From contig CAJTDQ010000002.1 in the NCBI GenBank assembly GCA_910574895.1, positions 62,001 through 126,000 of the forward strand: a stretch of 64,000 bases of DNA, written 5' to 3'. Made by a program: the position numbers and the translations under genes. Origin of the DNA: Eubacteriaceae bacterium (GTDB taxonomy: Bacteria > Bacillota > Clostridia > Lachnospirales > Lachnospiraceae). Positions 24,085-50,360 of this stretch are shown one piece after another; positions within the stretch are counted from its first letter, which is position 1, and every line of letters begins with the position of its first letter. The notes beneath the pieces were generated by a model. That model searched no databases, had not been told where the DNA came from, and saw nothing but the letters and a program-made list of their open reading frames with translations.

Positions 24085-24100
24085 TTTATTCCTTTCTTAT

Positions 24101-24346
24101 ACAATGGCAATGAGCCTTGTGTACCTCGACTTCTCTTCGTTTCGTCTCGCACGCAGGCTTCGCCTTATACTTCCCTGATTCTACTTACACAATGGCAATG
24201 AGCCTTGTGTACCTCGACTTCTCTTCGCTTCGTCTCGGTCACAGGCTTCGCCTTATACTTCCCTGATTCTACTTACACAATGGCAATGAGCCTTGTGTAC
24301 CTCGACTTCTCTTCGCTTCGTCTCGGTCACAGGCTTCGCCTTATAC
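24101..24346. repeat. 88-bp tandem repeat, 2.8 copies
   Basis: Units begin with ACAATGGCAATGAGCCTTGT at 24101, 24189 and 24277, an exact 88-base period. Copies 2 and 3 are almost identical; copy 1 has a few changes (TTTCGTCTCGCACG against CTTCGTCTCGGTCA). The third copy is cut at 24346 by a terminator hairpin, after which the unit head reappears inverted at 24409-24430. Each unit holds small hairpins (AGGCGAAGCCT on the minus strand). As 88 is not divisible by 3, the conserved open frames through it are not evidence of coding. Confidence 0.9.
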
Positions 24347-24407
24347 AAAAGAAAAAGACTTCACACATTTTTGTGCAAGCACAAATGTGTAAACTCTTTT
24401 TCTTTTA
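24346..24407. terminator. Bidirectional terminator after the SRP RNA
   Basis: Long imperfect stem: AAAAGAAAAAGA arms, then CACACATTTTTGTGC and its partner, with an AAGC-type loop. T-rich ends occur on both strands (TCTTTTTCTTTT). It lies about 55 bases after the SRP RNA 3' end and interrupts the 88-bp repeat array. Confidence 0.75.
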
Positions 24408-24430: not shown

Positions 24431-24459
24431 ATATTTTTATCCGTGCGATTTGCTTTGTG

Positions 24460-24706
24460 AATATTCCATAAGCGTTACCTTTACAGTTAGCTCGGTCTAG
24501 GCTTCCTCATGTCACACAAAACGATCTGCTTAGTGCTGCTTCATTCCTGACCTGACACGGTTCACAGGATTCTGTTGCATGAGACCCAGACGTCAACACC
24601 ACTTATAAAGGGCAGCCCTACAAAATAGACCCGAGGCAAATCATCACCCCTGCTGTAGCGGATTGCAGGTAAAGGGCTCCGCTAATTCCCCGGCTGCACG
24701 GAAGTG
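24460..24706 (-). ncRNA. ffs: Signal recognition particle RNA, large Bacillus type
   Basis: The minus strand carries the SRP core GTCAGGTCAGGAATGAAGCA followed by GCACTAAGC, the Ffh-binding helix 8 with its conserved GGAA-type loop region. The 5' part has the Alu-domain-like CCGTGCAGCCGGGG and the CCTGCAATCCGCTA segment. TTCCGTG near the 5' end pairs with TATGGAA near the 3' end (24464-24470), closing helix 1, and CTCGGGTCTA pairs with TAGACCGAG in helix 5. Length is about 245 bases. The tadA-ffs-dnaX order matches Bacillus. Ends are estimated to within about 10 bases. Confidence 0.92.
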
Positions 24707-32629: not shown

Positions 32630-32691
32630 ATAATGCCTCCTAATGTTTAGAGTATATCATATTTCGCGATTTATGTCGTTTTCTTTTTCTA

Positions 32692-33813
32692 AATTCCGGT
32701 TTGTCGAGGAGTGACTTTCCTGCTGAAGAAATACAGACAGAGAATATCTTCACCTCGATTCTTGAACATTTATAGAAAATAAAAATAATATTGAATATTT
32801 TAAGCACCGACTTCATCTTCGAAAAAATCCTGATGATTTTTTCTCAGGTAAGTCTGGACATTTGATTTTGTGAATCAAATGTCCGCTTAATATTCAATAT
32901 TATTTTTATTTTATAAATGTATTCAAGACTCTCAAGTTCCTATATTCTCTGTCCGTATTCTTCCAGCAGTGAAATGCCCTAACTTCTACAAACCCGAATC
33001 TGTCAAATGTGAAAGTACGGGCGGTCTGCCCATACTTTTTCGTCTAACAAATTTAATTTTGCGGGGATGAAGCCATGGCATACATGTGGGAATATTTAAA
33101 ATTCGTGATGAATCAGATGTATACAGAGGATTTTGCACCAAAATCCGGGCTTGGCTGATTAATAAAAGTATATTACATATATTTTTTTATCAAACCAGAA
33201 AACATATATGTAAAAATGTTTGAAAAATGTGGCAGGTGAAAACATATTACATATTTATCTTTACCTAACAACCAGATATATATGTAAAAAGTGTTTGAAA
33301 TTTATGGCAGATAAATATATATTACATATCTACTACGAAAAAATAAGAATTAATATATGTAATTTCGTATAATAAAGCGGAAAAAGCGATTGAAAATACA
33401 TCGGGAAACTAAAGAATCAATACTTTATATATGTAAATCTTAAATATGTTTTGTGGCAAGATGGTGCATTTTCTGTACACATCACGCTGACAACGAAATG
33501 CCGCCGTCACGACAATTACAATTTATAAGTTTGCGATTTGTGGTGGTGGGAAGAGATATAAAAGGAATACACTTGAAAACATTGAATTTCATAAACGGAT
33601 TTGTATATAAAAAAGAAGTACGTAATTAAAACTAAAATTTGATTTCCGAATCAAATTTTAAGGATTCACGGAGGAGAATTCAAATAAAGAATTCTCCGTA
33701 GTTGTATCCTGTGTTTTAAATTACTTACTTCTTTTTTATATCTACAAATGTTTATGAAATTCAGTTTCCAAGTGTATCCTTTTATACTCAAACCACCTCA
33801 ACAAACCGAAATT
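32692..33813. mobile_element. Composite hairpin element, copy 1 (1122 bp, TA-flanked)
   Basis: Ends are inverted repeats: AATTCCGGTTTGTCGAGG on the left, and the complement of AATTTCGGTTTGTTGAGG on the right, each flanked by TA (32690-32691 and 33814-33815). Module A (32713-32975) is a long imperfect palindrome whose arms include TTCCTGCTGAAGAAATAC and AATAATATTGAATATT. It encloses two apical hairpins (GAAAAAATC/GATTTTTTC and GGACATTTGATT/AATCAAATGTCC). Module B (33555-33787) repeats the plan with other sequence: arms ATACACTT...AAGTGTAT and AAGAAGTA...TACTTCTT, apical hairpins AAAATTTGATT/AATCAAATTTT and GGAGAATTC/GAATTCTCC. Modules A and B recur at 48563-49240. No transposase is present. 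Confidence 0.75.
33165..33368. repeat. Degenerate array of about 75-bp AT-rich hairpin units
   Basis: Three related units each begin ATTACATAT and contain ATATATGTAA 35-45 bases later, so each can form an ACATATAT/ATATATGT hairpin; two also share GTTTGAAA and TGGCAG. The array lies in the central part of element copy 1 and is missing from copy 2. Confidence 0.6.
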
Positions 33814-33842
33814 TAAACACCCCAGGGCTTATGCCCCGGGGT
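33811..33842 (-). terminator. Terminator at the element edge, downstream of the GH64 gene
   Basis: GC-rich stem ACCCCAGGGC/GCCCCGGGGT with a 4-base loop, followed on the minus strand by TTTAAATTT, which is the end of the composite element. Confidence 0.7.
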
Positions 33843-46963: not shown

Positions 46964-48562
46964 ATGTCAGTAAAGTACGTTTTTGTAACAGGCGGCGTAG
47001 TTTCCGGTCTCGGAAAAGGTATTACCGCCGCATCACTTGGCAGACTTCTGAAAGCACGTGGCTACAAAGTAACCATGCAGAAGTTTGATCCTTACATTAA
47101 CATTGATCCGGGTACTATGAACCCGGTACAACACGGTGAAGTTTTTGTCACTGACGATGGTGCCGAAACCGATCTCGACCTTGGACACTATGAAAGATTT
47201 ATCGATGAAAGTTTAACCAAAAATTCCAATGTAACTACCGGTAAGGTTTACTGGTCCGTCCTCGAGAAAGAAAGGCATGGAGACTTTGGTGGTGGAACCG
47301 TTCAGGTTATCCCACATATAACAAATGAAATTAAAAGCCGTTTTTACCGCAGTCTCAGTGAAGAAACCGAAATTGCAATCATTGAAGTGGGGGGTACGGT
47401 TGGAGATATTGAATCCCAGCCTTATATCGAGGCAATCCGCCAATTCCAGCATGATGTAGGACGTGAAAATTGTATTTTAATTCATGTTGCGCTTATGGTT
47501 TATCTGCCTGCTTCTGAGGAGATGAAAACAAAGCCGATACAAATGAGTGTTAAAGAATTACAGCGACTCGGCATCCAGCCTGATATCGTAGTCTGCCGTA
47601 CAGAATATGAAATCAATGAAGGTTTAAAAGATAAAATAAGCTTGTTCTGTAATGTTCCTTCAAGCCATGTTGTGCAGAATCTCACAGTAGATATGCTTTA
47701 CGAAGCACCACTTGCCATGGAAAAAGAGCATTTGGCAGAAATCGCGTGTGAATGTCTGAAACTAGAATGTCCTGAACCTGATCTTGAAGATTGGAAAACA
47801 ATGGTAGACTCGGCAAAGAATCCGACACAGGAAATCAGCGTAGCACTGGTAGGAAAATATATCGCACTCCATGATGCTTATATCAGTGTGGTAGAGTCTT
47901 TAAAACATGCAGGATATCCTAACCATACAACTGTTAATATTAAATGGGTTGATTCAGAAACAATTACAAATGAAAATGCAGATGAAATATTTGCAGATGT
48001 CTCCGGTATTATTGTTCCCGGAGGTTTTGGAAAGCGTGGCATTGACGGAAAACTTGCCGCAATAAAATATGCAAGAGAAAACAATATTCCATTTTTAGGA
48101 CTTTGTCTTGGCATGCAGTTATCTATTGTAGAATTTGCAAGAAACGTACTGGGATACAGAGATGCACATAGTATCGAATTAAATCCTGCCACAACTCATC
48201 CGGTAATCAGTCTTATGCCGGATCAGGAAGGTGTTACGGATATTGGAGGCACCTTAAGGCTCGGATCTTATCCTTGCGTTCTCGATAAAGACAGCAAAGC
48301 CTTCCAGTTATACGAAAGTGAACTGATACATGAACGTCATCGCCATAGATATGAAGTAAACAATGATTATAGAAATGATTTGACAGCAAACGGCATGAAA
48401 CTGTCCGGTATATCCCCTGATGGACGTATTGTTGAAATGATTGAAATTCCATCTCACCAGTTTTTTGTTGCCACTCAGGCACATCCAGAATTAAAGAGCC
48501 GTCCAAACAGACCACATCCTTTATTCCTTGGATTTGCGGAAGCTGCCATAAACAACAAATAA
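46964..48562 (+). CDS. pyrG: CTP synthase
   Basis: A 532-residue enzyme converting UTP to CTP with glutamine. The synthetase domain starts [20 protein letters not shown] and has the [20 protein letters not shown] motif. The class I glutamine amidotransferase domain has its nucleophile in [18 protein letters not shown] (Cys at about 381) and the His/Glu pair in the [19 protein letters not shown] end region. AGGAGGAAAA precedes the ATG. The stop codon TAA is directly followed by the left end of the second composite hairpin element. Confidence 0.96.
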
Positions 48563-49240
48563 AATTCCGGTTTATGGAGGAGTGACTTTCCTGCTGAAGA
48601 AATACGGACAGAGAATATCTTCACCTCGATTCTTGAACATTTATAGAAAATAAAAATAATATTGAATATTTTAAGCACCGACTTCATCTTCGAAAAAATC
48701 TTGATGATTTTTTCTCAGGTAAGTCTGGACATTTGATTTTGTGAATCAAATGTCCGCTTAATATTCAATATTATTTTTATTTTATAAATGTATTCAAGAC
48801 TCTCAAGTTCCTATATTCTCTGTCCGTATTCTTCCAGCAGTGAAATGTGTCAACCTCTACAAAACTGTATTAATCAAATGGGATAGTATGGGCAGTCTTC
48901 CCATAGAAAGTCCTTGTTTCGCTTGGTTGTACTAGTCTACGAATTTAATTTCTTAAAAATTCGATTCGTGGTGGTGGGAAGAGATATATAAGGATACACT
49001 TGGAAACATTGAATTTCATAAACGGATTTGTATATAAAAAAGAAGTAAGTAATTAAAACTAAAATTTGATTTCCGAATCAAATTTTAAGGATTCACGGAG
49101 GAGAATTCAAATAAAGAATTCTCCGTAGTTGTATCCGGTGTTTTAAATTACTTACTTCTTTTTTATATCTACAAATGTTTATGAAATTCAGTTTCCAAGT
49201 GTATCCTTTTATACTCAAACCACCTCAACAAACCGGAATT
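48563..49240. mobile_element. Composite hairpin element, copy 2 (678 bp)
   Basis: Left end AATTCCGGTTTATGGAGG and right end CCTCAACAAACCGGAATT form inverted repeats like copy 1. Module A (48582-48847) is nearly identical to 32713-32975 over about 260 bases; module B (48979-49217) is nearly identical to 33555-33787. The 130-base middle keeps a GGGCAGTCTTCCCATA hairpin but lacks the AT-rich array of copy 1. The element fills exactly the space between the stop codons of the convergent genes pyrG and the 49242-50360 lipoprotein, and no other terminator is present, so its stems may terminate both. Confidence 0.75.
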
Positions 49241-49241
49241 T

Positions 49242-50360
49242 TTAATAAAGTCCTGTTCCCTGTGCTCCTGCTGCCGCACCGAACTGGCTCAACATCATAT
49301 TTACCATAGCAGTAATATCTACGACACCTTCTGTCGGAACCAATTCCTTAATAGAAGCTTTTCCTTCTTTTAAGTTTGATGTAAATGAAACGCTTCCTGT
49401 TATATCGCTATCTGTATCTTTAATTTCTCCTGAATCAACAGATAATTTGCACACTCTCTCGCCTTCGTCACCTGTTACATTCAGTTTTGCTACGACATTC
49501 ACTTTTGCATCTTTCAATGTACTAACAATACTATCTTTATTCTCTTTTACTTCTTTAACAGCCTCATCTAATTGTGCTGTACTGTCCTTCTTCATTTCAG
49601 CAAACTGTTTGCCCATTTCTGTGTCAGCACCAAATATATTTACATACCAATCCATAAGTGCTGTATATACTTCTTTTAATGAACCGTCCTCGCAGAACTT
49701 AACCAAATCTGCTGCCACTTTGTCAGCATTATCGCTGCCAACTGTCAATGTATAATCATCTCCATCTTTTCCCTGAATATCTGCAAATGATTTATCGAGG
49801 TTCTCCATTACCTTTAATGTAAGATTCTGCAACTCCTCTGTAGACTTACTCATGTCCGGCATTTCAATATTCAAAGCCTGACATACCTGTTTCAGGTCTA
49901 ATGAAATATATCTGCCGGCACCCAGCTGACCGAATACTGTTTCAACCTGTTTTCCTATAGTCTCATCAACCGACTTGATAAAATCTGTTAATGCTCCAAC
50001 ATTTACATATAACTTCGTACCATCAATTACAATAGTAGTAACTTCTGCATATTCTGTCATTCCATACTGTGCAGATATCTTTATCGCCTGCTTTGTCTCT
50101 GACTCTGCAGTAGTCTCCACTTTCACATTAAGTGCTACATTATCTCCATTTTTTAACTGTTTTGGAATTTCCTTGTCCTTAGATATGCCTGTTCCTTTCG
50201 CGTTAAAACGAAACTCCATATCTGCTGTTCCTGTCTTAATTTCCTGCATTTTAGCAGCTTCTTTAAAGAAAGAACTGTTTTCTGCTTTTTTATCACCGCA
50301 GCCTGTAAGTACTGTCATTACCATTACCAATGACAACATGATTGATAATAATTTTTTCAT
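49242..50360 (-). CDS. Hypothetical lipoprotein
   Basis: A 372-residue secreted lipoprotein. The signal peptide (KKLLSIMLSLVMVMTVLTGC) ends in the lipobox LTGC. The mature part is an alternating strand/helix protein rich in Asp, Glu, Lys and Thr (FRFNAKGTGISKDKEIPKQL; VVAKLNVTGDEGERVCKLSV) with no catalytic motif I recognise. It resembles LolA/LppX-like or DUF-type Clostridial lipoproteins only in general character. AAGGAGGAAGG precedes the ATG. It has no gene partner; the NAD operon ends 86 bases upstream. Confidence 0.7.
   Translation of the reverse strand: MKKLLSIMLSLVMVMTVLTGCGDKKAENSSFFKEAAKMQEIKTGTADMEFRFNAKGTGISKDKEIPKQLKNGDNVALNVKVETTAESETKQAIKISAQYGMTEYAEVTTIVIDGTKLYVNVGALTDFIKSVDETIGKQVETVFGQLGAGRYISLDLKQVCQALNIEMPDMSKSTEELQNLTLKVMENLDKSFADIQGKDGDDYTLTVGSDNADKVAADLVKFCEDGSLKEVYTALMDWYVNIFGADTEMGKQFAEMKKDSTAQLDEAVKEVKENKDSIVSTLKDAKVNVVAKLNVTGDEGERVCKLSVDSGEIKDTDSDITGSVSFTSNLKEGKASIKELVPTEGVVDITAMVNMMLSQFGAAAGAQGTGLY

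What the first reader, a model, noticed from the sequence alone, without database searches (positions are those of the whole stretch)
32692..33813. Two-copy composite element with inverted ends and paired three-way-junction modules
Seen: both copies (here and at 48563-49240) have about 18-bp inverted ends (AATTCCGGTTTG type). Each carries two successive modules, each a long stem enclosing two apical hairpins. Modules A and B differ in sequence but share the design. The 260-base module A is nearly identical in both copies, implying recent spread or strong constraint. There is no transposase. Copy 1 is flanked by TA. Inference: a non-autonomous TA-targeting element, or a structured RNA element that also serves as terminator. 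I do not know a described family with this two-module plan.
Basis: partly seen in the sequence, partly recalled or inferred. Interest (0 to 1): 0.8.

Follow-up and report, generated by a model that had tools for sequence, protein, structure and literature searches.

The report
Mobile stop-to-stop DNA palindrome pairs
A family of gene-less mobile DNA elements in gut Lachnospiraceae carries pairs of very long palindromes whose tips fold into the same T-shaped structure and which sit flush against the stop codons of neighbouring genes; I found no description of the family, and the protein that moves it was not found.

Summary
The window's two copies belong to about 20 loci in this genome, with 31 copies of the three-way-junction core. 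The core recurs in at least 15 Lachnospiraceae genera; order and phylum samples (392 and 398 genomes, partly family members) gave no hit outside the family. Inverted module pairs recur in four other genera. Ends are 18-bp inverted repeats, often flanked by TA; no gene lies inside, no transposase was found. Modules A and B are one motif in opposite orientation.

Pairing covaries at all 34 pairs, but without G-U tolerance (G·T 49, A·C 56 of 3019 cells; SRP RNA of the same genus 385 and 55 of 2134). Stems vary while loop and junction bases are conserved. I infer a folded-DNA recognition element, not a structured RNA.

Where a gene's frame reaches the element, 32 of 39 ends stop exactly at the terminal TA, completed to TAA or TAG. 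At two loci relatives have a 41-134 bp spacer where this genome has only the element. Best reading: a non-autonomous MITE/BIME-like mosaic element lying where terminators lie. How it comes to lie stop-to-stop is unexplained.

The parts
32690..32691 (.). TA flanking copy 1 on the left
   Evidence: sequence
32692..32709 (+). left terminal inverted repeat of copy 1
   Evidence: 2 mismatches to AATTCCGGTTTGTAGGGG
32692..33000 (-). module A of copy 1: long palindrome; the core is read on the minus strand
32800..32891 (-). three-way-junction core of module A, copy 1
   Evidence: 107 bits with model R1
33165..33470 (.). centre of copy 1: repeats of TTACATAT...ATATGTAA
   Evidence: independent arrays in relatives
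33535..33813 (+). module B of copy 1: long palindrome, homologous to module A in inverted orientation
33626..33718 (+). three-way-junction core of module B, copy 1
   Evidence: 91 bits
33796..33813 (-). right terminal inverted repeat of copy 1
33814..33815 (.). TA flanking copy 1 on the right
   Evidence: sequence
48560..48562 (+). stop codon of pyrG, directly abutting copy 2
48563..48580 (+). left terminal inverted repeat of copy 2
48671..48762 (-). three-way-junction core of module A, copy 2
   Evidence: 107 bits
49053..49145 (+). three-way-junction core of module B, copy 2
   Evidence: 94 bits
49223..49240 (-). right terminal inverted repeat of copy 2; the convergent gene 49242-50360 (-) ends beside it

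Best explanation
The element is a non-autonomous mobile element of Lachnospiraceae, of the general MITE/BIME kind. It has short terminal inverted repeats, often flanked by TA, and carries one or, typically, two very long palindromes in opposite orientation, sometimes around an array of TTACATAT...ATATGTAA repeats. The tip of each palindrome is a three-way junction whose loop and junction bases are conserved across genera while the stems change freely. Shown: multiple copies, conserved ends, inverted pairs, DNA-type (no-wobble) covariation, conserved unpaired bases, flush position at stop codons, retention at some convergent gene junctions across species. Inferred: a trans-acting protein recognises the palindrome tip when it is extruded as a DNA hairpin or cruciform and moves the element; the palindrome arms are kept matched by template switching during replication; and the element persists because it supplies a stop codon and, with its A-tract and T-tract, a bidirectional terminator. 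How it comes to lie stop-to-stop is not explained; repeated transposase-driven adjacent deletions limited by selection at the stop codon are the simplest guess.
For: About 20 loci in the genome, recent ones 97-98% identical; 31 cores in this genome. 29 terminal-repeat matches against 1 for the reversed control. Seven loci have TA on both sides. Core in 15 of 299 family genomes and in a further genus, G201, with 38 matches to its own end TAGGAATTTGGTTCAGTGA. Inverted pairs of cores, minus then plus, in four other genera. Covariation at 34 of 34 pairs, score 0.863 against 0.212 shuffled and at most 0.164 when slid. G·T 49 and A·C 56 of 3019 cells; arms G·T 221 and A·C 201 of 8241; SRP RNA control 385 and 55 of 2134. 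Unpaired columns 0.98 bits against 0.56 for paired, P = 0.0004, 52 non-redundant modules from 13 genomes. A-tract 5' and T-tract 3' of the core in 58 of 85 modules; the reversed tracts in 12 and 5. Only 5 of 82 copies lie between divergent genes. Flush stops: 32 exact of 39 frames that reach the end. Orthologous copies between aroC and glyA in several relatives.
Against: No transposase, integrase or autonomous copy was found. Joining the flanks with one TA does not restore natural gene ends at most loci, so plain TA insertion is not the whole story. About half of the copies in this genome do not have TA on both sides. No transcript or termination data exist. Template switching alone could produce the covariation, so paired stems do not by themselves prove selection for folding.
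Confidence: 0.6

Rival explanations
1. A structured RNA (riboswitch-like or ribozyme-like three-way junction) that has been spread by a MITE, acting as RNA on the core strand.
For: Strong covariation and conserved loop bases, including positions that could form tandem G-A pairs, as in structured RNAs; it lies at transcript ends.
Against: No excess of G-U over A-C pairs on the core strand, unlike SRP RNA of the same genus. No Rfam match above threshold. Inverted pairs put one core on each strand.
Confidence: 0.12
2. Ordinary intergenic bidirectional terminators that happen to be long, kept palindromic by template switching, with no mobility of their own; copies spread by gene conversion.
For: Location after stop codons, A-tract and T-tract; retention between aroC and glyA; clustered arm-matching changes in L117 against L112.
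Against: Defined terminal inverted repeats with TA at non-homologous sites, recent near-identical dispersed copies, solo and composite forms with the same ends, and conserved loop bases that a terminator does not need.
Confidence: 0.15
3. The palindromes are ends of a site-specific cassette system: interiors, sometimes with genes, are exchanged at fixed stop-to-stop sites by a recombinase with a TA crossover.
For: At the ispE locus this genome has a 305-bp T-module and a relative an 86-bp unrelated palindrome with similar ends at the same position; two loci of that relative hold a gene inside such mosaics. Relatives' spacers are replaced stop-to-stop.
Against: No recombinase identified; independent insertion of different elements of one transposition family at the same TA is not excluded; only a few loci compared.
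Confidence: 0.13

Closest known systems
RUP of Streptococcus pneumoniae and other TA-flanked bacterial MITEs (ERIC, Correia/NEMIS)
   Same: Short, gene-less, intergenic, terminal inverted repeats; RUP has a TA target (PMC2229807, PMC3049150)
   Different: Several times longer, paired inverted modules with a three-way-junction tip, no matching IS found, flush at stop codons, divergent stems with conserved loops
BIMEs / REP elements of enterobacteria
   Same: Mosaic of palindromic units in alternating orientation plus other motifs, after gene ends (own knowledge)
   Different: REP units are about 35 nt (own knowledge); here 260-300 bp with a three-way junction, and terminal repeats with TA
BOX and SPRITE repeats of Streptococcus pneumoniae
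   Same: Modular with variable centre (BOX); SPRITE resembles a long rho-independent terminator (PMC3049150)
   Different: Three-way-junction tip, terminal repeats of another sequence, and no sign of RNA-type pairing here; a sequence comparison with BOX or SPRITE was not run
Palindrome-associated elements of IS200/IS605 (hairpin-recognised ends)
   Same: Ends carry hairpins that could be recognised folded (own knowledge)
   Different: Here the ends are true inverted repeats and the two hairpins are in opposite orientation

Membership tests
MITE (TA-targeting, IS630/Tc1-mariner type) | terminal inverted repeats at the ends of many dispersed copies | tested here: met
MITE (TA-targeting, IS630/Tc1-mariner type) | duplicated TA flanking the ends | tested here: inconclusive
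   TA on both sides in 7 loci of this genome and 9 of 11 complete G201 copies, but flanks joined with one TA do not give natural gene ends in most cases
MITE (TA-targeting, IS630/Tc1-mariner type) | autonomous element or transposase with the same ends | tested here: not met
   PF13358 absent from the genome; no end match outside module-bearing elements; no autonomous copy seen in G201. Draft assemblies; other transposase families were not screened
MITE (TA-targeting, IS630/Tc1-mariner type) | no coding capacity | tested here: met
   exception: mosaics with genes in G013
BIME/REP | palindromic units in alternating orientation in extragenic mosaics | tested here: met
BIME/REP | REP consensus and RAYT (TnpA-REP) transposase | not tested
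   no RAYT search was run; the unit is far longer than REP
Structured RNA family | covariation that tolerates G-U pairs | tested here: not met
   control
Structured RNA family | match to a described Rfam family | tested here: not met
Intrinsic terminator | hairpin followed by a T-tract | tested here: met
   layout only: 58 of 85 modules
Intrinsic terminator | terminates transcription | not testable with these tools
   no transcript data

The most novel reading that the evidence does not exclude
A new class of mobile element recognised as a folded T-shaped DNA structure, which replaces the whole spacer between two convergent genes from stop codon to stop codon, supplying both stop codons and the terminator, and in some species carrying exchangeable gene cargo.
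Probability: 0.2. Interest if true: 0.9.

Novelty: new variant of a known kind. Interest (0 to 1): 0.72.

Why it matters
It would be among the largest and most elaborate folded elements of the bacterial MITE-like repeats, with base-level evidence that the folded DNA, not an RNA, is what is kept. It makes three questions testable: which protein reads the T-shaped tip, whether long palindromes rewrite their own arms by template switching over evolutionary time, and how a mobile element comes to fit exactly between two stop codons without harming either gene.

Tried and rejected
Rfam search at gathering and permissive thresholds gave nothing credible (a plant miRNA model at E = 0.002, far below its gathering score, is a generic long AU hairpin). 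No relatives in phage, plasmid or viral collections with the queries used; the viral scan used one pattern only. IS630-type DDE_3 search of the genome: none. Search for an autonomous copy by end pattern in this genome and G201: none. Literature searches in the open-access library found no description of such a family in Lachnospiraceae; absence there is weak evidence. A parvovirus-ITR-like rolling-hairpin idea was considered for the T-shaped inverted pair and set aside: no replication protein, and many modules elsewhere are solo. One script timed out without result.

Full report
What is there. The two window copies are real and have sharp ends. Copy 1 is 32692-33813, copy 2 48563-49240. Each starts and ends with the same 18-bp repeat in inverted orientation. 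Inside are two long palindromes, module A and module B. Reverse-complemented A aligns with B, so they are one motif used twice in opposite orientation. Copy 1 has an extra centre with TTACATAT...ATATGTAA repeats, about 500 bp between the modules; copy 2 has 56 bp there.

Copies in the genome. A search of the whole genome gave 84 matching stretches at about 20 loci, and a covariance model of the core (R1) found 31 cores. Some loci are solo modules with ends on both sides, for example C2:28086-28394; others are composites, truncated copies, or copies with a second insertion. The 29 matches to the terminal repeat lie at such loci. Seven loci have TA on both sides.

Distribution. R1 found the core in 11 of 23 genomes of the genus and 15 of 299 of the family, 14 genera, with up to 14 copies in one genome besides this one. 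A wider model (R2) found one more genus with at least 10 copies in the order sample and nothing outside the family in the order and phylum samples. Those wide scans scored few candidates per genome, so weak copies can be missed. In four genera looked at closely (G260, G194, G299, G277), twelve loci carry two cores, minus strand first, then plus, 385-1000 bp apart, which is the window's plan. G277 also has a TTACATAC...GTATGTAA centre. The centre repeats also occur alone as tandem arrays in relatives.

The fold. The core is a long stem, a hairpin P2, one A, a hairpin P3 with an internal loop, and a short 3' junction. Across 90 distinct cores 92.7% of cells pair, all 34 pairs show changes on both sides, and the covariation score is 0.863 against 0.212 in shuffles and 0.164 at best when slid. 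That alignment was fitted to the structure, so these figures lean towards it; the smaller MAFFT alignment gives the same picture. Across 52 non-redundant modules from 13 other genomes unpaired columns carry 0.98 bits and paired ones 0.56 (P = 0.0004). So the stems drift while the loops stay.

DNA or RNA. In a functional RNA, G-U pairs are accepted and A-C are not. I counted both on the core strand: 49 G·T and 56 A·C of 3019 cells in the core, 221 and 201 of 8241 in the arms. The SRP RNA of the same 23 genomes gives 385 G·U and 55 A·C of 2134. The modules therefore show no sign of RNA-type pairing. Matching arms can be produced at DNA level by template switching at imperfect palindromes, a known process in E. 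coli (PMC7202029). The orthologous copies between aroC and glyA fit this: between two types of this site 16 pairs changed on both sides with pairing kept, 2 changed on both sides and broke, and 13 changed on one side. In L117 three clustered substitutions turn the right arm into the exact complement of the left arm of its relative L112. This last point is my reading of one event.

Position. Only 5 of 82 copies lie between divergent genes; 38 lie between convergent ones (genes were called by ORF length only). An A-tract before and a T-tract after the core are present together in 58 of 85 modules, a bidirectional terminator layout. Inverted repeats after stop codons are mostly parts of terminators in E. 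coli (PMC6060812). Termination was not tested here.

Flush fit at stop codons. In this genome and G201, 32 element ends have the neighbouring gene's frame arriving exactly at the terminal TA, which the next base completes to TAA or TAG; 7 ends are read through in another phase. One third would be expected by chance (binomial P about 5e-10, own arithmetic; ends are not fully independent). Further G201 loci show the same. Joining the flanks with a single TA gives natural gene ends only in a few cases. At the L040 locus four relatives have a spacer of 93-134 bp, and at L045 one relative has 41 bp, while here both genes end at the element with nearly unchanged C-termini. So spacer DNA was lost or replaced. 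I do not know how. Adjacent deletion by a transposase, stopped by selection at the stop codon, would do it; so would cassette replacement. The window copies are less tidy: copy 2 abuts the stop codons within 1-2 bp on both sides, copy 1 lies 81 bp from the only gene end that faces it.

Different contents at one site. At the ispE locus this genome has the 305-bp module and G013 an 86-bp unrelated palindrome with similar ends at the same position. At two other loci G013 has mosaics with a gene inside: a HIT-family protein and an XRE-phosphoribosyltransferase (names from reading the sequence, not from a family search).

The mover. No DDE_3 transposase in the genome, no element with the same ends and a gene inside in this genome or in G201. 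Other transposase families were not screened.

Verdict. A non-autonomous, mobile-looking element family, new in detail, nearest to MITEs and BIMEs. The folded-DNA reading and the stop-to-stop fit are the unusual parts.

Noticed in passing
window 24096-24359: Three tandem 88-bp direct repeats (94% and 81%) just beside the SRP RNA gene (24441-24701, minus strand).
   Followed up: no
L053, L060, L064, L067 (G022), L054 (G012): Tandem arrays of about 90-bp units with TTACATATAT...ATATATGTAA, often next to a hairpin GCAGAACCTGCATCCGC...; they occur without the T-shaped modules.
   Followed up: partly
alignment A4 (L108, L109, L111, L112, L117), both coding ends: The palindrome between aroC and glyA seems to reach into both coding ends: AAGAATTGACGGA occurs near the 3' end of both genes in different frames.
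   Followed up: partly
L251 and L252 (G013): A HIT-family gene and an XRE-phosphoribosyltransferase gene lie inside mosaics of these elements at sites where the window's genome has no gene.
   Followed up: partly
L202-L240 (G201): G201 elements have a different left module, a terminator-like hairpin within a long palindrome, paired with the T-shaped module at the right.
   Followed up: partly
L035 2860-3097 and L040 2484-2723: Two copies carry a similar insertion inside hairpin P3 of the right module.
   Followed up: no
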